DNA of 64,000 nt from Streptomonospora nanhaiensis (GTDB lineage Bacteria; Actinomycetota; Actinomycetes; Streptosporangiales; Streptosporangiaceae), in the NCBI RefSeq assembly GCF_013410565.1, contig NZ_JACCFO010000001.1, positions 4,278,001-4,342,000 of the forward strand, written 5' to 3'. A model generated the notes under the pieces. The model was not told the DNA's origin. It saw only the letters and a list, made by a program, of their open reading frames with translations, and made no database searches. A program made the translations under genes and the position numbers. How positions within the stretch are numbered: position 1 is the first letter of the stretch; every line of letters starts with the position of its first letter. This document shows, piece after piece, positions 3,878 through 49,635 of the stretch.

Positions 3878-6067
3878 CTACAGGAAGCGCAGCACCAGCA
3901 TCGCCGTGTCGTCCGTGTGGCCGCCCGGGGCGAACTCCTCCAGGTCGCGGTCGATGCGGACGATGACCGCCTGGGCCGTCAGGCCCGAGCAGTTGGCGAA
4001 GATGCGGGTCAGGCCCTCGTCGCCGAGCATCTCCGTGCCGCTGCGTCGCTCGGTCACGCCGTCGGTCACGGCCAGGAGCACGTCGCCCGAGTGCACCTCG
4101 ATGGTCTCGGTGAAGAAGTCCACGTCCTCGAAGGCGCCCAGCAGCGGCTGGGAGGTGCCCAGGGAGTCGACCTCGCCCTTCTGGTTCAGGCGCAGGGGGA
4201 GCGGGTGGCCCGCCGACACCATGCGGATGCGCATGCCGCCCTCGTCGCCGCCCAGCGGCGTCATCTCGCCGTAGAGCATGGTCAGGAACCGGGTGCTGGT
4301 GTTCTCGTCCAGGATGGCCTTGTTCAGCCGGTCCATGATGTGCGCGGGCGAGAACCCCTCGCGCGCCAGCGCGCGCAGGGTGTGGCGGGCCAGGCCGGTG
4401 ACGGCGGCGGCCGCCGGGCCGGTGCCGCAGACGTCGCCGATGGCGAAGCACCAGCGGCCGTCCGTGGCGAACATGTCGTAGAAGTCGCCGCCGACCACCG
4501 TGCGCTCGTCGGCCGAGCGGTAGAACACCGCGTGGTCGACGCCGGGGATGTCGGGCTCCTTCTCCTTGGCCGGAAGCAGGCTGCGCTGCAGCGCCTCGCT
4601 CATGGAGGTCTGCCCCGCGTACAGCCGCGCGTTCTCCATGGCCGAGGACACCCGCTGGGCGAGGTCGTCGACCACGTCCACGTCGTCGCGGGTGAAGTCG
4701 GCGCCGGCGTCCTTGCCCAGGGTCATCCGCCCCAGGGTCTGCCCGTGCGCCACCAGCGGCACGCTGATCCCCGGCCCCTCGGCCAGCTCCAGCAGCAGTT
4801 CGTCGTCCATCCCGGCCAGCGACAGCATGTCGCGGTTCCACAGTGGCCGGGGCTCGCGCTGCTCGGGCGGCGGCAGCTCCGTCAGCAGGGTGCGCAGGAC
4901 GTCGTTGTAGTTCTCGTTGCGGTGCATCACGTGCATCAGCCGCGAGGTGCCCAGGTCGCTGATGGAGTGCACCGCGCACCAGCTGCCCAGCCGCGACGCC
5001 ACGAGCTGCGCCGCCAGTGCGGCGGTCATCTGCTCGTTCAGCGTTCCGGTGAGCAGGTCGCTGGCCTCGGCCAGGAAGCTCAGGCTCGCCCGCCGCGCCA
5101 GCTCCACCTCGGCCAGACGGGCGCGCTCGATGGGCAGGGCGATCCGGTCGGCGCCGTCCTGCAGCCGCTGCGCCGCGGTGTCGCCGAAGTGCCGGATGCG
5201 CCGCGAGGCGACCCCGATCAGCCCGGTGATGCGCCCGTCGACGATGAGCGGCGCGGTGACCAGCGAGCGCATGCCCGCCCGCGCCAGCTTGCCCCGGTGC
5301 GCGCGGGCGATCATCAGGTCGTCGTTGATGACCGCGCCCGGCGCCGGCGCCACCGACGGGAAGGTCTCCTCGGTGCGGCTGCGGAACGGCCGCCAGGGCC
5401 CGGACGACAGCCCGGTGGCCGCGCGCATGTCCCACTGGGTCTCGTCGGTGGTGGCCAGCGCGATGTAGGCGGCGTCACCGCCCAGCGCCGAGCGGGCGTA
5501 CTCCACCGTGCGGTCCAGCAGGTCGGGCAGCGCCAGCCGCGCCGACAGCGCGGCGTCCAGCGCCGCCCACGGACTGGGTCTGGGCGGGCGGCGGCGCTGC
5601 GGGCGCACCGGCAGCGGCGGCGCCAGGGCCGGGCCGTCGGCCTCCGTCGGCGCGTCCTCCTGCATGCGGAACCAGACGGCCTTGTCGTCCTTGCTGTAGC
5701 TGACGCCCCAGCTGGTGGCGAGCGCCGCCGCCAGCGCCAGGCCCAGGCCGCCGCTGCGCCCGGGGTCGGCGGAGGGCGAGGTGTCCACGGCCAGCGGGCC
5801 GGCCTGCGGCACGGCGCGCTCGGGCACGCGGTCGGCCACGACCACCTCGACGGCCGAGGGGAGGCGCCGGACCACCAGCTCCAGCACGCTCTCGGCGTGC
5901 ACCACCGCGTTGGTGACGAGTTCGCTGACCAGCAGGATGATGTCGTCGGCGGAGCGTTCGGCGCCCCAGGACGCCAGGGTCTCGCGGACGAACTCGCGGG
6001 CTTCGCCCGCGGTCTCGGGTGTGGGGGAGAACTCGCGGCGGGCTGTCTTCAGCGTTTCAGGTGGCAT
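3878..6067 (-). CDS. SpoIIE/RsbU-type PP2C phosphatase with HATPase and GAF sensory domains
   Basis: Encodes 729 residues. Residues 1-135 resemble an RsbW/SpoIIAB-like ATPase (LVSELVTNAVVHAES is the N-box; a glycine-rich GGLGLALAAAL box follows). Two GAF-like regions occupy roughly 190-480. The C-terminal PP2C/SpoIIE domain (about 500-729) carries metal-binding motifs GGDFYDMF, AIGDVCGTGP and LLAVTDGVTERR. Such proteins dephosphorylate anti-sigma-factor antagonists in partner switching; the fused kinase-like ATPase is common in actinomycetes. No Shine-Dalgarno sequence is evident before the ATG at 6067. It is divergent from the multi-HAMP kinase, the arrangement I recall next to osaAB in Streptomyces. 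STAS and HATPase proteins elsewhere in the window are possible partners. Confidence 0.9.
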   Translation of the reverse strand: MPPETLKTARREFSPTPETAGEAREFVRETLASWGAERSADDIILLVSELVTNAVVHAESVLELVVRRLPSAVEVVVADRVPERAVPQAGPLAVDTSPSADPGRSGGLGLALAAALATSWGVSYSKDDKAVWFRMQEDAPTEADGPALAPPLPVRPQRRRPPRPSPWAALDAALSARLALPDLLDRTVEYARSALGGDAAYIALATTDETQWDMRAATGLSSGPWRPFRSRTEETFPSVAPAPGAVINDDLMIARAHRGKLARAGMRSLVTAPLIVDGRITGLIGVASRRIRHFGDTAAQRLQDGADRIALPIERARLAEVELARRASLSFLAEASDLLTGTLNEQMTAALAAQLVASRLGSWCAVHSISDLGTSRLMHVMHRNENYNDVLRTLLTELPPPEQREPRPLWNRDMLSLAGMDDELLLELAEGPGISVPLVAHGQTLGRMTLGKDAGADFTRDDVDVVDDLAQRVSSAMENARLYAGQTSMSEALQRSLLPAKEKEPDIPGVDHAVFYRSADERTVVGGDFYDMFATDGRWCFAIGDVCGTGPAAAAVTGLARHTLRALAREGFSPAHIMDRLNKAILDENTSTRFLTMLYGEMTPLGGDEGGMRIRMVSAGHPLPLRLNQKGEVDSLGTSQPLLGAFEDVDFFTETIEVHSGDVLLAVTDGVTERRSGTEMLGDEGLTRIFANCSGLTAQAVIVRIDRDLEEFAPGGHTDDTAMLVLRFL

Positions 6068-43054: not shown

Positions 43055-43711
43055 TCAGCGCACCCGGCCGTCCCACTGCCAGGACGTCCGCCGGGCCAGG
43101 CCCGGCAGCGCCGCGCGGCCCGTGCACCACAGCAGGGTCGCGGCCGGGGCGTGGCCGCCGGGGGCGTCCGGGAAGAGGCGGGCCAGTGCCGCCGCGCCGA
43201 GGTCGCCCGGCATGGTCCAGGCCAGGCCGAGCGACCGGCCGATGTCGTGGGTGTGCACGAGCAGTTCGACCACCCCCATGGCCGCGAACCCGGCCGCGTC
43301 GGCGTGGCCCCAGGGGTGCCACGCTCGGACCTCCTCGGGCGTGTCCCGCACCGTCGTGGTGAGCAGGGACGCGGCGATCCGCAGCCCTTCCACGCAGTCG
43401 GCGATCGGTGCCTGGGGGTCGAGCGAGCCGAAGAGGGTGATGTAGCGGTCGCGCGGCCGGGCGATGAGCAGCCCGGCGTAGCCCAGCAGCCCGAGCGCCA
43501 GGTGGTCGAGCGTCTGCCGGCAGGACCAGTCCAGGCCGTGGGCCGGGCGCGACCAGTCCCGGTCGGCGGCCGCCAGCAGGGCGTCCAGGCAGGTGTCGGC
43601 GGCGGTCGTGAGCAGGCGGGGCCACGTCCGGACCGCGTCCGCGGGCCGTCCCGGGGCCGCGGCCGGGGAACGGGCGGCGGTCGGGGAGAGGGGGCCGGAT
43701 GCGGAGGTCAC
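43055..43711 (-). CDS. DinB/maleylpyruvate-isomerase-like (mycothiol-dependent type) protein
   Basis: Encodes 218 residues. MDMPI-type four-helix fold: a His in the first helices (CRQTLDHLALGLLGYAG) and the C-terminal metal motif VVELLVHTHDIGRSLG, typical of mycothiol-dependent enzymes of the DinB superfamily. The exact reaction is unknown. Its ATG overlaps the TGA of the upstream gene remnant (ATGA), showing it was once the second gene of a coupled operon with an imine-reductase-like enzyme. Confidence 0.83.
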   Translation of the reverse strand: MTSASGPLSPTAARSPAAAPGRPADAVRTWPRLLTTAADTCLDALLAAADRDWSRPAHGLDWSCRQTLDHLALGLLGYAGLLIARPRDRYITLFGSLDPQAPIADCVEGLRIAASLLTTTVRDTPEEVRAWHPWGHADAAGFAAMGVVELLVHTHDIGRSLGLAWTMPGDLGAAALARLFPDAPGGHAPAATLLWCTGRAALPGLARRTSWQWDGRVR

Positions 43712-43965
43712 CGCGCCTCCACCGGCGCGCGCAGGACCTCGACCACTCCGGCGAAGCTGTCGGCGCCGTGCCCGGCCGCGGCGGCCCGCTCCATCAGGCC
43801 CTTGAGCAGTTCGGGCAGGCCGGTGTCGATCCCGCGCGTCCGGGCCGCGTGGACGAGGTGGTCCACGGCCGCGATCTGCACGTCCACCGTGGCGTCGTCA
43901 CCGGGGTAGCGGCCGGCGTCCACCTGGGACGCGTTCGCGCCTGAGCGGTGGTTGCGGAGGACCAC
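43708..43965 (-). pseudogene. C-terminal remnant of an imine reductase/6-phosphogluconate dehydrogenase-like gene
   Basis: The last 85 codons before a TGA encode a recognisable C-terminal helical domain of NADP-dependent beta-hydroxyacid-dehydrogenase-like or imine-reductase proteins (VDAGRYPGDDATVDVQIAAV, GLPELLKGLMERAAAAGHG). Full-length members are about 290 residues; the Rossmann half is missing. The GTG at 43965 has no ribosome site. The break point is near 43960, right where the CDPS side begins, so truncation probably accompanied insertion or rearrangement there. Confidence 0.75.
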
Positions 43966-44105
43966 GTTCGCAGGGTGCCGCCCGCCGGAGCAGTGACAGC
44001 GGTGACGGTCTTCGCCAAATTCCTGCCACCCCCGCCCGGGGGCGGACCGGGGGAGCCGCGCGCCTCGCGCGCCGCGCCCCCGGCCGGGGCCGGTGTGCGG
44101 GGCCG

Positions 44106-44828
44106 TCAGGCCGGGTCCGCGGCGGGGGCCGCGGGGCGGATGGTGGCATAGCCCTGCCAGGGCGGGGCCTGGAGCACGGACTTTCCGGCGAAGACCAGTT
44201 CGGCCAGGGGCAGCCGCTGGTGGTAGAAGTTCAGCGACGAGGGCGCGCCGAACACGTCGGCGGACGCCAGGAAGAACGGCAGTTCGGCGATGAGGTAGCG
44301 CATGGCCCGTTCGACGCGGTCGGGGGTGAGCGGGCCGTCGTACCCCCGGCCGAGCAGGACGGCGCCGCTCATCTCCGCGCAGGTCTCCCACAGGAGGTCG
44401 TCCGCCTCCAGCGCCTGTTCGCACTCGGCGAGCCTTTCCTGGTAGACCGCGTTGTCCGCCAGGTCCGACATCCGGTGCAGGCCGTCGTCCTTCCGGGGCC
44501 CGCCGCTGCTTTCCCAGGCCCGCGCCACCCTGTTGCGCAGTACGTTGGTCTCGCCGCGCGCCTTCTTTTCCGCCCGGCGGTCGTCGTAGCCGAGCGCGCG
44601 GAAGGTGTGCGCCAGCGCCGAGTTGGGAACGACCACGTCCACGCGGGCGAATTCCGCGCACAGCCAGCGCAGCAGTTCCGCCATCAGTTCGGTGCGGAAA
44701 TAGCTGTTTCCGGGACTCACCCCGAAAACGACGTGCTGCCGCTGCTGCCAGACCGTTTGGCACGTTTCCGTGAACGGTTCCACGGTGAAGGGAGCCGGGC
44801 GGTGTCCGGCTTTTTCGTTCCTGTCCAC
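44106..44828 (-). CDS. tRNA-dependent cyclodipeptide synthase (NYH subfamily)
   Basis: Encodes 240 residues from a GTG behind GGAGG (4 nt). It aligns with AlbC-like CDPSs by motif: FGVSPGNSYF gives nucleophile Ser38 and Asn41, MRYLIAELPFF gives Tyr178 and Glu182, and FYHQRLP gives Tyr202-His203. The Asn/Tyr-His pattern places it in the NYH subfamily. CDPSs use two aminoacyl-tRNAs to make a 2,5-diketopiperazine; the amino acids cannot be read by eye. The basic helix (DDRRAEKKARGETNVLRNRV) would bind tRNA. It lies 20 bp after an AMP-ligase gene on the same strand, clearly one operon. No cyclodipeptide oxidase, P450 or methyltransferase is adjacent. Confidence 0.94.
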   Translation of the reverse strand: MDRNEKAGHRPAPFTVEPFTETCQTVWQQRQHVVFGVSPGNSYFRTELMAELLRWLCAEFARVDVVVPNSALAHTFRALGYDDRRAEKKARGETNVLRNRVARAWESSGGPRKDDGLHRMSDLADNAVYQERLAECEQALEADDLLWETCAEMSGAVLLGRGYDGPLTPDRVERAMRYLIAELPFFLASADVFGAPSSLNFYHQRLPLAELVFAGKSVLQAPPWQGYATIRPAAPAADPA

Positions 44829-44848
44829 TGCGCCTCCGTGTGTCGTGC

Positions 44849-46462
44849 CTACGTCCAGCGGCCGGTGCCGGGGCGCTCGGCCTCGCCGAGGTGCCGGCGG
44901 CGCAGTTCCTCCCGGCGGACCTTGCCGGTGCCGGTGCGGGGCATGTCCGCGAGGGCGATCACGACGGGGTCGGCGAGGTCGGGCAGGCCGCGCGCCGCCC
45001 GCCGCCACACCTCGGGGTCGAGCCGGCCGTCGGGCGTGGCGACGACGGGCACCGGCGGACCGCCGCTGACCGCCAGCAGCGCGACGTCGTGCCGCGGGGG
45101 CAGGTGGTCGACGAGGACGTCCTCCAGTTCCAGGCAGCTCAGGCCGGGCGTGTGGTTGACCTCCCGGTCGAGCAGCTTGACGCTTCCGGTGCGGGTCCTG
45201 ATCCCGATGTCGCCGGTGTTCCACCACTCGCCGACGGCCTTCTCCCGCCAGCGTTCCGGTTCGCCGTAGTAGCCGACGCAGCGCGCCTTGGTGCGGGCGA
45301 ACACCAGGCCGGGCCGGCCGTCGGGCACCGGTTGGAAGGTCTGCGGGTCCACCACCTTGATCTGGACGAAGGTGGGCATCGGGCGGCCCACCGTGCGCGG
45401 GCCGGGCTCCTCGTCGCGGCGGCGGTTGGCGGTGCGGCGGGTGATGAACGTCATCCCCAGGCCGCCGGTCTCGGACTGGCCGTATCCGTACCGCCACAGG
45501 GGGAACGGGTGTTGGGAGGCGTTCAGGAAGGACCGGATCGTCGACCAGTACACGGCGTCGAACGTGCTCGCGAACATCCGGACGGAGGAGAACACGTTGC
45601 TGGCGCGCTCGCGGGCGAGGTCCTCCAGGTTGGTGAAGTCGATCGGCAGCGCCTCGATCACGGTGGGCGGGTGCTCGCGGAACAGCGGCCGGACGGTCGC
45701 GGGGTCGCTGTCGCTCATCAGCAGGACCTTGGCCGGCGCCAGGGTCAGCACGGAGTAGATCCAGGTGAAGGCGCGGGCGTGGACGTAGGGCATGAACACG
45801 GCCACCGTGTCGGAGCGGCGGAACGTGATCGGCGGCAGGTGGCGGCACTCCAGCCGGGCCATCTGGCCCTGGAGCTTGGCCGGCGTGTACATGATGAGCT
45901 TGGGCACGCCCGTGGTCCCCGACGTGTGGGTGAGCATCATCAGCTCGTTGTTGGGGCGCGGCGCCGGCGCGGGCTCGGGGGCGCCCTCCAGTTCGGCCAG
46001 GGTGAGGGCGCCGGGCACGCCGCCGTCCAGCGACAGTGTGCGGTCGGCGAAGGACGCGAGCGGCTTCCCGTCGCCGTCGGCGGGGGTCAGCCGCCGCCGG
46101 TCGCTGATCAGCAGCGCGGGCTCCACCCGCTGGAGCAGCGCCCGCACCGCGTCGTCGGGCAGCAGGCCCGAGAGCATCACCGGAACCGCGCCGATCCGGC
46201 TCGCCGCGGCGGCCAGCAGCACGCAGTCGAAGTGGTTGTCCTTGAACACGGCGACCCGGTCGCCGGAGCGGACCCCGGCCGCGTGCAGGGCCGCCGCAGT
46301 GCCGCGCACGCAGTCGGCCATTTCGCCGATGTCGAGGAGGGTGCGGCCCCGCGGGTCGATGTCAAGCGGCCGGCTGAGGCGGAAGACCATGGGCTTGCCC
46401 GTTCGCGCCCTGCGGTCGAAGAGGAGTCCTAAATTGGATTTCCAGAGTTGGTTGTTGCGCAT
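44849..46462 (-). CDS. AMP-forming acyl/aryl-acid ligase encoded with the cyclodipeptide synthase
   Basis: Encodes 537 residues, the length of a full ANL adenylation enzyme. Core motifs: THTSGTTGVPK (178-188, ATP P-loop), YGYGQSETGG (325-334), WWNTGDIG (413-420) and the C-terminal catalytic Lys514 in PRTGTGKVRREEL. The hinge region (LLDREVNHTPG) departs from the usual R-D-x-I-K pattern. There is no carrier-protein domain. The ATG follows GGGAGAA; a TTGACG/TTGTCT promoter lies 70-98 bp upstream. It activates a carboxylic acid, possibly to acylate the diketopiperazine or make a CoA thioester; the substrate is unknown. Confidence 0.9.
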   Translation of the reverse strand: MRNNQLWKSNLGLLFDRRARTGKPMVFRLSRPLDIDPRGRTLLDIGEMADCVRGTAAALHAAGVRSGDRVAVFKDNHFDCVLLAAAASRIGAVPVMLSGLLPDDAVRALLQRVEPALLISDRRRLTPADGDGKPLASFADRTLSLDGGVPGALTLAELEGAPEPAPAPRPNNELMMLTHTSGTTGVPKLIMYTPAKLQGQMARLECRHLPPITFRRSDTVAVFMPYVHARAFTWIYSVLTLAPAKVLLMSDSDPATVRPLFREHPPTVIEALPIDFTNLEDLARERASNVFSSVRMFASTFDAVYWSTIRSFLNASQHPFPLWRYGYGQSETGGLGMTFITRRTANRRRDEEPGPRTVGRPMPTFVQIKVVDPQTFQPVPDGRPGLVFARTKARCVGYYGEPERWREKAVGEWWNTGDIGIRTRTGSVKLLDREVNHTPGLSCLELEDVLVDHLPPRHDVALLAVSGGPPVPVVATPDGRLDPEVWRRAARGLPDLADPVVIALADMPRTGTGKVRREELRRRHLGEAERPGTGRWT

Positions 46463-46840
46463 CCGTTCTCCCGCATTCCTTCGTTGGACTGGGATAACCG
46501 GTTCACAATCCCTGGGATGAGACCAGGGGCCAGACAACCAACCGCTTTTTCGCGCGTCAAGCTCACTTTTCACTTATGTCACATTGGCCGGATGTGGCCT
46601 TTGTGGGGAATTCTCAAACCAGTGCCCGGCGGTTAATCCGGGCGGTTTTCCGGTACCGTCCTTTCCAGGGATTCAACGGCTGGAAACGGGAGGTAGGCCG
46701 CATTCGGGTCCGGCGTGCGAGGGTGTCCCCACGCGCGCCGCGCCGGCGCGCGGAACACGGCGGGGCCGACCGCCGGAACGGCGGTCGGCCCCGACCACTC
46801 ACCGGGCCCGCGGGCGGCGTCCGCGCGCGGAGACGGGCGG
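46463..46840 (-). promoter_or_regulatory. AT-richer promoter region of the ligase-CDPS operon
   Basis: 378 bp. Minus-strand elements TTGACG (46555-46560) and TTGTCT (46532-46537) are 17 bp apart. AACCGGTT (46496-46503) is a small palindrome. The stretch 46430-46680 is visibly less GC-rich than the flanks, consistent with acquired DNA. A terminator for the next gene occupies 46762-46792. Confidence 0.55.
46762..46792 (-). terminator. Terminator of the coiled-coil gene
   Basis: A perfect 13-bp stem (46762-46774 with 46780-46792) and 5-nt loop lies 48 bp downstream of the coiled-coil gene stop on the minus strand. Confidence 0.8.
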
Positions 46841-49219
46841 CTACTCCTCGTCGTCCTCGTCGAGGTCGCGGCGGCGGCGCTTCTTGCCGTCGCGGCCGGG
46901 CCGCAGCAGGGCCTCGGCCAGGGCGAACATGGTCTCCTCCAGCGCGGCCAGGCGCTTGGTGACGTCGTCGTGGGAGGTCTCGACCGCCTCGGTGATGACC
47001 TCCTCGAACTCGTGGCGGTCGGGGCGGGCCTGGACCTCGCGCAGCAGCGGGTCGACGCTCTCGCTGAGGCGGCTGCTCAGGCTCTCCAGGCGGTCGGTGG
47101 GGTCGATGACCGGGCGGTCCACCAGTTCGCCCAGGCGGCGGTGCACCTCGCTGAACTCCAGTGTGGCCGGCAGCTGGGCCAGGCGCTGGTTGAGCGCCTC
47201 CAGGCGGTCGTCGACGGCCTCCAGGCGGCCGTCGACACCGTCGATCTGGCCGTTGACGCCCTCGAACTGGCCCTCGACGCCGTTGACCCGGCCCTCGATG
47301 CCGTCCAGGCGCCCGTTGATGCCGTCGATGCGGCCGTCCACGCCGTCGATCTTGCCCTCGACGCCTTCGAAGCTGCCCTCGAAGTGACCCTCGAAGGTGT
47401 CGAACCGGTCGGCCAGCCGGCCCAGGCCGTGCTCGAACTGCGCGGTGATGGACTCCAGGTGCCGGTCGACGCGCTCGGCCAGCTCCCTGCGGCTCTGCTC
47501 CAGGCGGCCGTCGATGGCCTCGCGCTGCTCCTCGACCAGGTTGGTCAGCGCGCTGTGCCGGTCGTCGCCGCTCTGCTGGAGGGCGCCGGTGCGCTCCTCG
47601 ACCGAGGCGCCCAGCTCCGTGATGCGGGTGTCGACCGACTCCCGCAGCTCGCCGATGCGCTCCTCGACGCCGTCGCGCAGCGCGGCGACCCGCTCCTCGA
47701 CGGCGGTGCGCAGCTCGCGCAGCGCGGCGAGGGCGGCGGTGTGGTCCTCGTCGAACTTCGCGCGCAGGCCCCCGGCGGTCTCCTCCAGGCGGGCGGCGAG
47801 GTCGGTGCGCTGCTGGTCGTCGCGCTCGCGCAGCTCGGCGCGGTGCAGCTCCAGCTGCTCGTGCAGCTCGGTGAGCCGGTCGCGCACGTGGGCGCGGATG
47901 TCGGCCAGGCGCTCCTCGGTGTCCTCGGCCAGCTTGACGACGGCGCTGTTGGCGTCGGCGACGGCGGCGGTGGCCTCGGCGTGGTTCTCCTCGGCCTGGG
48001 TGCCCAGGGTGGTGAAGCCCTCGCCGACCTGCGCGGCCAGGGCGGTGTGGCGTTCGTCGGCGCGGGTCTCCAGGCGCTCGACGCCCTCGGTGAGGGCGGT
48101 GCGGTGCTCGTCGGCGCGGGAGTCGAGGCGCTCGATGCCCTCGGTGAGGGCGGTGTGGCGTTCGTCGGCGCGGGAGTCGAGGCGCTCCACGCTCTCGGTG
48201 AGGGCGGTGCGGTGCTCGTCGGCGCGGGTCTCCAGGCGCTCGACGCCTTCGGTGAGGGCGGTGTGGCGTTCGTCGGCGCGGGAGTCGAGGCGGTCGATGC
48301 CCTCGGTCAGCGCGCTGTGGTGCTCGTCGGCGCGGGTCTCCAGGCGTCCGATGCCCTCGGTGACGGCGGTGTGCTGCTCCTCGGCGGTGCCGCGCAGGGA
48401 GTCGGCCGCGGTGTCGATCCTGCCGCCCAGCGACCCGGCCTCTTCGCGCACCGCCGACTCCAGGGCCTCGCGGCTCTCGGCGATCGAGGCGGCCAGGGAC
48501 TCGCGGCCCTCGGCCACGGCGGTCTCGACGGAGGCGCGGCCCTCGGTGATGGCCTCGGCCAGGGCGGCGCGGCCCTCCTCGACCGCCGCGGCCAGCGCCT
48601 CGCGGTGCTCGGCGGCGGCGCCCATGGCGGTCTCGTGCTGCTCGGCCATGCGCTCGCCCACCTGCGCCAGCGAACCGCTCAGCGACTCGGCCTGGCCGCG
48701 CAGGCCCTCGACCGCCTCGTCCAGGCGGGCGAACCGCGCCTCGGCGCCGGCGGCCAGTCCCTCCAGGCGCTCGGTGAGGGTGTCCAGGCGCGCCGAGTGC
48801 TGCTCACCGGACTCGCCCAGCGCCCGCAGCCGCGTCAGCACGGAGTCGAGGTGCCCGGTGATCCCCCGGATGTCGGCGCGCAGCGCCGCCATCTCGGCCA
48901 GCGGCTTGACGCGCTCGCCCACCAGCGCGATGTGCTCGGCGAGGGTCTCGGCCCACTCCGGGGGCCGCGAGGTCAGCTCGTCGACCCGCGCCTGGACGCC
49001 GGCGACCGACTCGGCGAGGGTGGCGAACTCGCGCTCGCGGAACTCGCGCAGCAGCCACTCCATGCCTTCGAGGCGCTGGCGCATCTCCTCGTTGACCGCG
49101 CTCTGGGACTTCTGCTCGGACAGCTGGTCCTGGGCTGCCCGCGACAGCAGCTCCCGCATGCGGTCGGAGACTCCGGCCTGACCTCCTCCGTTGAGGAAGT
49201 CGTGGTTGGGCTGTTCCAC
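46841..49219 (-). CDS. Long repeat-rich coiled-coil protein of unknown function
   Basis: Encodes 792 residues from a GTG behind AAAAGGAG. Almost the whole chain is charged, helical and Ala/Glu/Arg-rich. The N-terminus (PNHDFLNGGGQAGVSDRMRE) is the only non-repetitive part. Six tandem 18-residue repeats (consensus GIERLDSRADERHTALTE) lie in the middle. Near residues 610-680 about nine heptads of the form VDGRIDG/VEGQFEG follow, and the tail is basic then acidic (KKRRRRDLDEDDEE). No signal peptide or membrane segment. It may be a cytoskeletal, chromosome-associated or scaffold protein; I recognise no named family. Confidence 0.85.
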   Translation of the reverse strand: MEQPNHDFLNGGGQAGVSDRMRELLSRAAQDQLSEQKSQSAVNEEMRQRLEGMEWLLREFREREFATLAESVAGVQARVDELTSRPPEWAETLAEHIALVGERVKPLAEMAALRADIRGITGHLDSVLTRLRALGESGEQHSARLDTLTERLEGLAAGAEARFARLDEAVEGLRGQAESLSGSLAQVGERMAEQHETAMGAAAEHREALAAAVEEGRAALAEAITEGRASVETAVAEGRESLAASIAESREALESAVREEAGSLGGRIDTAADSLRGTAEEQHTAVTEGIGRLETRADEHHSALTEGIDRLDSRADERHTALTEGVERLETRADEHRTALTESVERLDSRADERHTALTEGIERLDSRADEHRTALTEGVERLETRADERHTALAAQVGEGFTTLGTQAEENHAEATAAVADANSAVVKLAEDTEERLADIRAHVRDRLTELHEQLELHRAELRERDDQQRTDLAARLEETAGGLRAKFDEDHTAALAALRELRTAVEERVAALRDGVEERIGELRESVDTRITELGASVEERTGALQQSGDDRHSALTNLVEEQREAIDGRLEQSRRELAERVDRHLESITAQFEHGLGRLADRFDTFEGHFEGSFEGVEGKIDGVDGRIDGINGRLDGIEGRVNGVEGQFEGVNGQIDGVDGRLEAVDDRLEALNQRLAQLPATLEFSEVHRRLGELVDRPVIDPTDRLESLSSRLSESVDPLLREVQARPDRHEFEEVITEAVETSHDDVTKRLAALEETMFALAEALLRPGRDGKKRRRRDLDEDDEE
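48032..48355 (-). repeat. Six tandem 54-bp repeats coding 18-residue units
   Basis: Consecutive units read GIGRLETRADEHHSALTE, GIDRLDSRADERHTALTE, GVERLETRADEHRTALTE, SVERLDSRADERHTALTE, GIERLDSRADEHRTALTE and GVERLETRADERHTALAA. The DNA copies are nearly identical, so copy number may vary between strains. An 18-residue period fits a right-handed or straight coiled coil rather than a simple heptad coil. Confidence 0.9.
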
Positions 49220-49635
49220 CGAGGTGCTCCTTTTCGGATCGGGCGCCCCACCCGGTTCGGCCGTGGATGGGCGGTGGGCTCCTGGGGGTTCCGGCGTGGC
49301 TCTGGCACGGTGTCCGGCGGGGGACGCGCCCGCGACGCGCCGCACACGGACGGGGGCTCGATGGTCACGCGGGGTGATGGTCGGGGTCGCGGTGGACGGG
49401 GGCAACCGGCCGACCGGCGACCGACCTGTGCGCTTCGCCGGGGGAGCCCAGGAAAGGACGGATTCAGCGGTGGCCAGTCTAACGACTCGCGCCTGTTCAC
49501 CGTGTTAGAAGCGGCAAAGGAGAGGTGCGGACGGAAGTGGTCTGGAGCGTCACGCTAGTACCGATCGCCGCGTTAGTCACCCCTTGTGGCAGTGGGCGGT
49601 GAATGGCGGTGGTTTGTCCGATGAGTGTGTTTTGT
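49220..49635. other. Intergenic region upstream of the coiled-coil gene
   Basis: 416 bp between two minus-strand genes. A less GC-rich part at 49470-49640 has several candidate hexamers on the minus strand (for example TAGACT near 49475 and a TACTAG near 49555), but none forms a convincing pair. No gene is visible. Confidence 0.35.

What the first reader, a model, noticed from the sequence alone, without database searches (positions are those of the whole stretch)
44106..46462. Cyclodipeptide synthase in an operon with an AMP-forming ligase
Seen: a complete CDPS (Ser38, Asn41, Tyr178, Glu182, Tyr202-His203) lies 20 bp after a complete ANL adenylation enzyme (P-loop 178-188, Lys514), same strand, with one clear promoter upstream of the ligase. 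Known: characterised CDPS clusters usually carry cyclodipeptide oxidases, P450s, methyltransferases or prenyltransferases; I do not recall an adjacent stand-alone adenylating enzyme. Inference: the ligase activates an acid that is attached to the diketopiperazine, or opens/modifies it, giving an undescribed tailoring route.
Basis: partly seen in the sequence, partly recalled or inferred. Interest (0 to 1): 0.85.

Follow-up and report, generated by a model that had tools for sequence, protein, structure and literature searches.

The report
Cyclodipeptide synthase with partner adenylating enzyme
A small, mobile pair of bacterial genes makes a ring-shaped two-amino-acid compound, probably from tryptophan, and probably attaches something to it with an enzyme whose job is unknown; the gene neighbourhood itself was already described in 2010.

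Summary
The two genes are real, intact and on the same strand, 20 bp apart; the promoter was not confirmed. The pair is not peculiar to this strain. In 11 genomes from 11 genera and 3 families, each close relative found of the ligase (at least 67% identical) has the CDPS next to it (11 of 11). None of 28 other CDPS loci read has this ligase. One of the 11 is Actinosynnema mirum, identified by its exact genome length. Its only CDPS should be Amir_4627, reported to make only cyclo(Trp-Trp), followed by the N-methyltransferase Amir_4628. The window CDPS has the same first-pocket motif (8 of 8), so tryptophan is likely there.

The CDPS/acyl-CoA-ligase neighbourhood was published in 2010, so the association is not new. 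What the ligase does is unknown. It is in all 11 loci, the methyltransferase in 6. It groups with nitrite-activating enzymes (Tri17, CmaA6), away from CoA ligases, and its shortened hinge loop lacks the glycine found in 6 of 6 CoA- or carrier-type references, so direct transfer of the adenylate to an acceptor is more likely than CoA thioester formation. In the window the pair is a 2.8-kb insert, absent from five of five congeners. Acid and product remain unknown.

The parts
44106..44828 (-). Cyclodipeptide synthase (NYH subfamily, 240 aa, GTG start); P1 pocket motif VGVPMFFN, P2 MAVGQLP
44849..46462 (-). Stand-alone adenylate-forming (ANL) enzyme, 537 aa, orthologous to the ligase beside the CDPS in 10 other genomes
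44829..44848 (-). 20-bp gap with Shine-Dalgarno-like GGAGG (44833-44837) in front of the CDPS start; in 7 of the 10 relatives the two genes overlap by 10 nt instead (by my own start calls)
44030..46829 (.). Inserted segment that holds exactly these two genes; in the closest congener (L130) 95 bp stand here
   Evidence: blastn; outer limits approximate because the flanking terminator-like stretch also differs
46463..46829 (-). Upstream region of the ligase (GC 0.66); promoter expected here but no sigma-70 consensus found
43708..43965 (-). Remnant (C-terminal 85 aa) of an imine-reductase/reductive-aminase-like gene; the gene is whole (295 aa) in the closest congener

Best explanation
A laterally acquired two-gene biosynthetic module. 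The CDPS takes two aminoacyl-tRNAs and makes a tryptophan-containing cyclodipeptide, most likely cyclo(Trp-Trp) (inferred from A. mirum). The ligase adenylates a small acid that any host has (inferred) and passes the activated group straight onto the cyclodipeptide, at an indole or ring nitrogen (inferred), with no CoA or carrier protein in between. Shown: the two intact genes, the linkage in 11 of 11 genomes, the insertion, the conserved catalytic residues, the missing CoA-type hinge glycine and the clade with non-CoA relatives. Not shown: the acid, the acceptor atom and the product.
For: (1) The 11 ligase orthologues found in 342, 396, 394 and 54 genomes searched (samples overlap) are each followed directly by this CDPS; none of 28 other CDPS loci read has it. 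(2) Of 167 predicted proteins around the 11 loci, only ligase and CDPS are shared by all; next come a methyltransferase in 6 loci, then DUF3050 in 3 and an ABC-ATPase-like protein in 3; no acyltransferase or carrier recurs. (3) The window insert holds only the two genes and is absent from 5 of 5 congeners, so the module must run on host metabolites. (4) A. mirum (G1431, 8,248,144 bp as in the abstract of PMC3035213) has one CDPS only; Amir_4627 makes only cyclo(Trp-Trp) (PMC4159871); its P1 motif equals the window's. (5) The ligase groups 100/100 with Tri17, CmaA6 and 9xb8, apart from CoA ligases and an NRPS-type adenylation domain, and shares His179 and Asp302 with them alone. (6) The hinge-loop glycine is present in 6 of 6 CoA- or carrier-type references and absent in the 3 Tri17-like references and in the 9 members of this ligase family on that alignment.
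Against: No substrate or product has been measured. The ligase also scores highly against fatty-acid CoA ligases (FadD5 3e-40, TtFACS 6e-38), and fold scores hardly separate the classes (Z 38.5 for CmaA6, 37.0 for MenE, 34.8 for McbA). The hinge loop is shortened, so its alignment is ambiguous: most family members have a Pro-Gly two columns before the missing glycine. The window P2 motif (MAVGQLP) differs from that of A. mirum (MEVLRLP), so the second amino acid may not be tryptophan. Asn at P1 position 8 is the tyrosine marker of Rv2275 (PMC5816076), which would argue for tyrosine if A. mirum were not known. The two protein trees differ on the place of G177 (with the window in the ligase tree, 98/98; outside the other linked CDPSs, 95/83 and 83/87), so the pair may not always have moved as one. 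Methylation of the ring nitrogens in A. mirum would compete with conjugation at the same atoms.
Confidence: 0.45

Rival explanations
1. The ligase is an ordinary acyl- or aryl-CoA ligase whose thioester is used by an acyltransferase encoded elsewhere in the genome.
For: The best scores with a profile of the family are FadD and FadD5, and the best NCBIfam hits are acyl-CoA ligases.
Against: It reaches none of the curated cut-offs of the 25 NCBIfam models shown, of 80 matched; the hinge glycine of CoA ligases is missing; no acyltransferase recurs around the 11 loci; the transferred unit has only two genes. An unlinked acyltransferase was not searched for.
Confidence: 0.2
2. The ligase activates nitrite (nitrous acid) and nitrosates the cyclodipeptide, as its relatives Tri17 and CmaA6 do with hydrazones and aryl amines.
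For: 100/100 clade with Tri17 and CmaA6, with His179 and Asp302 shared; CmaA6 and Tri17 take ranks 1-3 in the structural comparison, though nearly tied with the next rows. About half of the ava-type clusters lack nitrite-making genes of their own (PMC10777205, passages read), so their absence here would not exclude it.
Against: Arg230, Glu270 and Phe301, invariant in this family, are not in Tri17, CmaA6 or 9xb8, so the acid pocket differs; score far below the 3-aminoavenalumate diazotase model NF058622 (66 of 975 bits); cyclo(Trp-Trp) has no aryl amine; I noticed no nitrite-making gene pair in the gene lists of the loci (read by eye, no family search).
Confidence: 0.12
3. The ligase makes aminoacyl-CoA that the CDPS uses instead of aminoacyl-tRNA (the 2010 proposal in PMC2922099).
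For: Proposed from the gene neighbourhood (passage read).
Against: The A. mirum CDPS has cyclo(Trp-Trp) as its single product and is described as tRNA-dependent (PMC4159871, section 9 read). The window CDPS keeps all six catalytic residues of tRNA-using NYH enzymes.
Confidence: 0.05
4. The two genes are neighbours by descent but work in unrelated pathways.
For: The substrate of the ligase is unknown, and the two trees differ on the place of G177.
Against: 11 of 11 linkage over 3 families, gene overlap in most loci, a two-gene insert in the window.
Confidence: 0.05

Closest known systems
Actinosynnema mirum Amir_4627/Amir_4628 cyclo(Trp-Trp) cluster
   Same: Same CDPS subfamily (63% identical, identical P1 motif) and the same ligase in front of it (69%)
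   Different: A. mirum also has the N-methyltransferase downstream (found in 6 of 11 loci, not in the window); the text of PMC4159871 section 9 covers only the CDPS and the methyltransferase (its figure was not seen)
CDPS plus acyl-CoA ligase neighbourhood of PMC2922099 (2010) and 'ACS' in the cluster figure legend of PMC4159871 (2014)
   Same: Same gene association
   Different: The passages read give no function test of the ligase; the 2010 proposal (aminoacyl-CoA for the CDPS) is not favoured here
ATP-dependent diazotases and N-nitrosylases (CmaA6, Tri17)
   Same: Same ANL subclade, His before the P-loop, Asp302, no CoA-type hinge glycine
   Different: Arg230, Glu270, Phe301 and the shortened hinge loop are found only in the present family on that alignment; sequence identity 19-21%
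Diketopiperazine-terpene loci of the dmt type (PMC6173783, passages read)
   Same: The nearest unlinked CDPSs (L039, L040; P1 motif VGVPMFFC) branch next to this CDPS clade and have phytoene-synthase-like neighbours, as the dmt loci do
   Different: No ligase; in L039 an Asp/Glu racemase instead. That these are dmt-type loci is a resemblance, not a test

Membership tests
Cyclodipeptide synthase, NYH subfamily | PF16715 fold and catalytic Ser37, Asn40, Tyr178, Glu182, Tyr202, His203 (AlbC numbering) | tested here: met
cyclo(Trp-Trp)-synthesising CDPS group (A. mirum type) | Pocket motifs P1 and P2 like Amir_4627 | tested here: inconclusive
   P1 identical in 8 of 8; P2 differs at 3 of 7 (MAVGQLP against MEVLRLP)
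cyclo(Trp-Trp)-synthesising CDPS group (A. mirum type) | Product cyclo(Trp-Trp) | not testable with these tools
   Needs expression and mass spectrometry
Cyclodityrosine synthase (NF052540) | Curated model cut-off of 300 bits | tested here: not met
   158 bits
ANL adenylate-forming superfamily | PF00501, P-loop, TGD motif, catalytic Lys of the C-terminal domain | tested here: met
Acyl- or aryl-CoA ligase | Glycine of the A8 hinge loop that lines the pantetheine tunnel (role recalled) | tested here: not met
   Absent in the 9 family members aligned; present in 6 of 6 references; the shortened loop makes the alignment ambiguous there
3-Aminoavenalumate diazotase (NF058622) | Curated model cut-off of 975 bits | tested here: not met
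   66 bits
ATP-dependent diazotase / N-nitrosylase in general | Activation of nitrite | not testable with these tools
   Only the clade and shared residues were tested
Amide bond synthetase (McbA type) | Close sequence or structural kinship | tested here: inconclusive
   E 2e-24 and Z 34.8, below CmaA6 and Tri17 but not clearly apart; McbA was not in the tree

The most novel reading that the evidence does not exclude
The pair encodes a hitherto unseen type of cyclodipeptide tailoring: an ANL enzyme of the nitrite-activating subclade that nitrosates, or otherwise conjugates without CoA, a tryptophan cyclodipeptide made by its partner CDPS, giving an N-N- or N-acyl-modified diketopiperazine. The published cyclo(Trp-Trp)/N-methylation pathway would then lack its most conserved enzyme.
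Probability: 0.3. Interest if true: 0.8.

Novelty: new member of a known kind. Interest (0 to 1): 0.5.

Why it matters
In the A. mirum cluster the CDPS and methyltransferase were characterised, as the text of the 2014 review PMC4159871 tells it, yet the ligase is the partner kept in 11 of 11 related loci while the methyltransferase was found in 6. If the ligase conjugates the cyclodipeptide directly, the real end product may have been missed, and ATP-driven N-acylation or nitrosation would join the list of cyclodipeptide modifications. A two-gene, self-contained cassette found in three families is also an attractive biocatalysis tool.

Tried and rejected
Rejected: cyclo(Tyr-X) as the product. 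I first read Asn at P1 position 8 as the Rv2275-type tyrosine marker; the A. mirum orthologue with the identical P1 motif, reported to make only cyclo(Trp-Trp), overturned it.

Rejected: the pair as a strain-specific accident (11 genera), and the pair as vertically inherited in this genus (absent from 5 of 5 congeners).

Led nowhere: the first CDPS reference was out of frame (44109-44829), so (its first protein; its first protein) returned nothing for the CDPS and were repeated in frame. Plasmid records with a match (23) all had their best place under 60% identity. Paper searches joining CDPS with an adenylating enzyme showed no functional study of this ligase among the papers listed (several lists were capped, e.g. 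30 of 232, 30 of 64, 12 of 98, 15 of 123); most subscription papers are not held, and I did not see the 2013 A. mirum paper. Limits of the genome searches: only the best 3 or 4 first-look candidates of each genome were scored (27), so orthologues may have been missed; and one search found CDPS matches in 53 genomes, of which I read the surroundings of the best ones only. Rows dropped before counts: L018 from the CDPS tree (its catalytic columns did not align); L010 and L011 as duplicates of L036 and L009, while L012 and L038_G175 (identical rows) both stayed in the CDPS tree. The split ligase of G175 (two contig ends, C43 and C44) is counted as one gene and was left out of the 10-row alignment. 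In the ANL tree two reference rows have long branches that meet. Amide bond synthetases such as McbA were listed below CmaA6 and Tri17.

Full report
What is there. The window holds a complete CDPS (44106-44828, minus strand, GTG start, 240 aa) and, 20 bp upstream on the same strand, a complete ANL enzyme (44849-46462, minus, 537 aa). A good ribosome-binding site (GGAGG) precedes the CDPS. A sigma-70-type promoter was not found. The genome has no second CDPS.

How general the pair is. I searched for the ligase in 342 genomes of the order, 396 of the phylum, 394 of the family of G057 (the family that holds Kitasatospora, G865) and 54 of the family of G1303 (the samples overlap in part, and only the best few candidates of each genome were scored). 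Orthologues at 67% identity or more were found in 11 genomes: window G000, G177, G109 (Marinactinospora thermotolerans, L009), G175, G865 (Kitasatospora sp. MAP5-34, L008), G877, G968, G808, G1303, G1432 and G1431. In all 11 the CDPS lies directly downstream on the same strand. The next ligase relatives listed are at 51% or less; of the 19 context loci compared, most sit in a different conserved cluster. Conversely, of 39 CDPS loci read, the 11 with CDPS identity of 62% or more have this ligase and the 28 with 57% or less do not. The 39 were picked from the top of the hit lists, not at random. Two of the 28 have an NRPS-type adenylation gene several kb away.

Trees. The linked ligases form one clade at 100/100 (8 rows, 10 rows). 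The linked CDPSs form one clade at 100/99 (9 rows, two of them identical) and at 98/94 with all 11. The trees agree on the group of the seven Streptomycetaceae-family and G1303-family rows and on G1303 with A. mirum. They disagree on G177, which joins the window in the ligase tree (98/98) but lies outside the other linked CDPSs (95/83, 83/87).

Neighbours. Of 167 predicted proteins around the 11 loci, only ligase and CDPS occur in all 11; a methyltransferase occurs in 6 (L008, L108, L110, L150, L170, L171), a DUF3050 haem-oxygenase-like protein in 3 (L008, L108, L110) and an ABC-ATPase-like protein in 3; no acyltransferase or carrier protein recurs (Pfam names for the first two). Some of these loci are cut by contig ends (L036, L038/L084). 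DUF3050 was not found anywhere in 5 of the 8 genomes searched for it, the window's among them; the other three genomes were not searched whole.

Prior knowledge. G1431 has a contig of 8,248,144 bp, the published length of A. mirum 101T (abstract of PMC3035213), and one CDPS only. That CDPS should therefore be Amir_4627, which makes only cyclo(Trp-Trp); Amir_4628 then methylates the ring nitrogens (PMC4159871, section 9 read). [quoted passage not shown] mirum and Streptomyces sp. AA4 was reported in 2010 (PMC2922099, passages read), and an acyl-CoA synthetase appears in the abbreviations of a CDPS cluster figure in 2014 (PMC4159871, passage read). I saw no functional study of the ligase among the papers listed by the searches; several lists were capped, and I did not see the 2013 A. 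mirum paper.

What the CDPS makes. With the pocket positions of PMC5816076 (passages read), all 11 linked CDPSs have P1 = [VL]GVP[MI]FFN; the three nearest unlinked ones (L151, L039, L040) have VGVPMFFC. The window P1 equals that of A. mirum (8 of 8), so tryptophan in P1 is the best call. P2 differs at 3 of 7 positions, so the second residue is less sure. Asn at position 8 taken alone would have suggested tyrosine.

What the ligase is. A structure model (mean pLDDT 86.9) is a normal ANL fold; its best structural match is CmaA6 (Z 38.5, rmsd 3.2, 495 aligned), with Tri17 third (37.8), and FadD13, MenE and McbA close behind. Sequence profile searches give FadD, FadD5 and TtFACS first, then Tri17 and CmaA6. 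In a tree with six PDB chains and three other actinobacterial ANL proteins, the ligase family, Tri17, CmaA6 and 9xb8 form a 100/100 group; two of the other rows have long branches. Shared by that group and absent from the other six rows: His179 before SGTTG and Asp302 in the loop that carries GG or GA in most CoA ligases. Present in this family (22 of 22 rows) and in none of the other rows: Arg230, Glu270, Phe301 and Glu434. The hinge (A8) loop is three or four residues shorter, so the glycine present in 6 of 6 CoA- or carrier-type rows is missing; Tri17, CmaA6 and 9xb8 have another residue there. The alignment of the shortened loop is ambiguous. That this glycine lines the pantetheine tunnel is recalled from work on acetyl-CoA synthetase. 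Tri17 and CmaA6 use nitrite with ATP, with adenylation of nitrite as the proposed mechanism (PMC11705231 and PMC10777205, passages read).

How it got here. Five of five congeners have tsaD, the coiled-coil gene and groES in the same order without the pair. In the nearest one (L130) an intact reductive-aminase-like gene stands there. The window matches it up to 43934, again from 43936 to 44029, and again from 46830, so 684 bp of that gene are gone and about 2.8 kb with exactly two genes have come in. A unit of two genes that moves between hosts can rely only on aminoacyl-tRNA and common metabolites (inference).

Mechanism proposed. CDPS: two aminoacyl-tRNAs to cyclo(Trp-Trp) or cyclo(Trp-X) (inferred from the orthologue). 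Ligase: ATP plus a common small acid to the adenylate (inferred from the intact ANL motifs), then direct transfer to the cyclodipeptide (inferred from the clade, the missing glycine and the lack of any recurrent carrier or acyltransferase). Nitrite is a possible acid but not favoured, since the acid pocket differs from that of the nitrite users. The 2010 idea that the ligase feeds the CDPS is disfavoured, because the A. mirum CDPS is described as a tRNA-dependent enzyme with cyclo(Trp-Trp) as its single product.

Verdict. A good, testable open question inside a known type of gene cluster; not a new type of cluster.

Noticed in passing
window 43708-43965 (minus): C-terminal 85-aa remnant of an imine-reductase/reductive-aminase-like gene that is whole in the closest congener (L130 2184-3071); the truncation lies next to the insertion of the CDPS pair.
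   Followed up: yes
G000:C1:4462000-4478000 (L068) and paralogue loci L070-L083: Relatives of the ligase (about 41-49% identical) sit in another conserved and, to me, unknown biosynthetic cluster: two DegT aminotransferases, UbiA, FAD amine oxidase, CoA-transferase III, a second adenylating enzyme and a methyltransferase. Of 19 context loci (four of which are of other kinds), 15 have the UbiA gene and 14 the DegT genes.
   Followed up: partly
L008 8854-9777, L108 about 4561-5427, L110 6640-7449: DUF3050 (haem-oxygenase-like) gene directly after the CDPS in three genomes of the Kitasatospora family; function unknown.
   Followed up: partly
L039 5592-7342, L040 6261-7253: CDPS next to a phytoene-synthase-like gene and, in L039 by Pfam, an Asp/Glu racemase; possibly a diketopiperazine-terpene locus with a stereoisomerase.
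   Followed up: partly
PDB 9xb8: An entry named fatty-acid-CoA ligase FadD groups with the nitrite-activating Tri17 and CmaA6 and shares their Asp-Ala-x-His loop; its name may be wrong.
   Followed up: no
window 46841-49405 (minus): Repeat-rich 854-aa coiled-coil-like protein (apolipoprotein-type Pfam match), kept in all five congeners between tsaD and groES.
   Followed up: no
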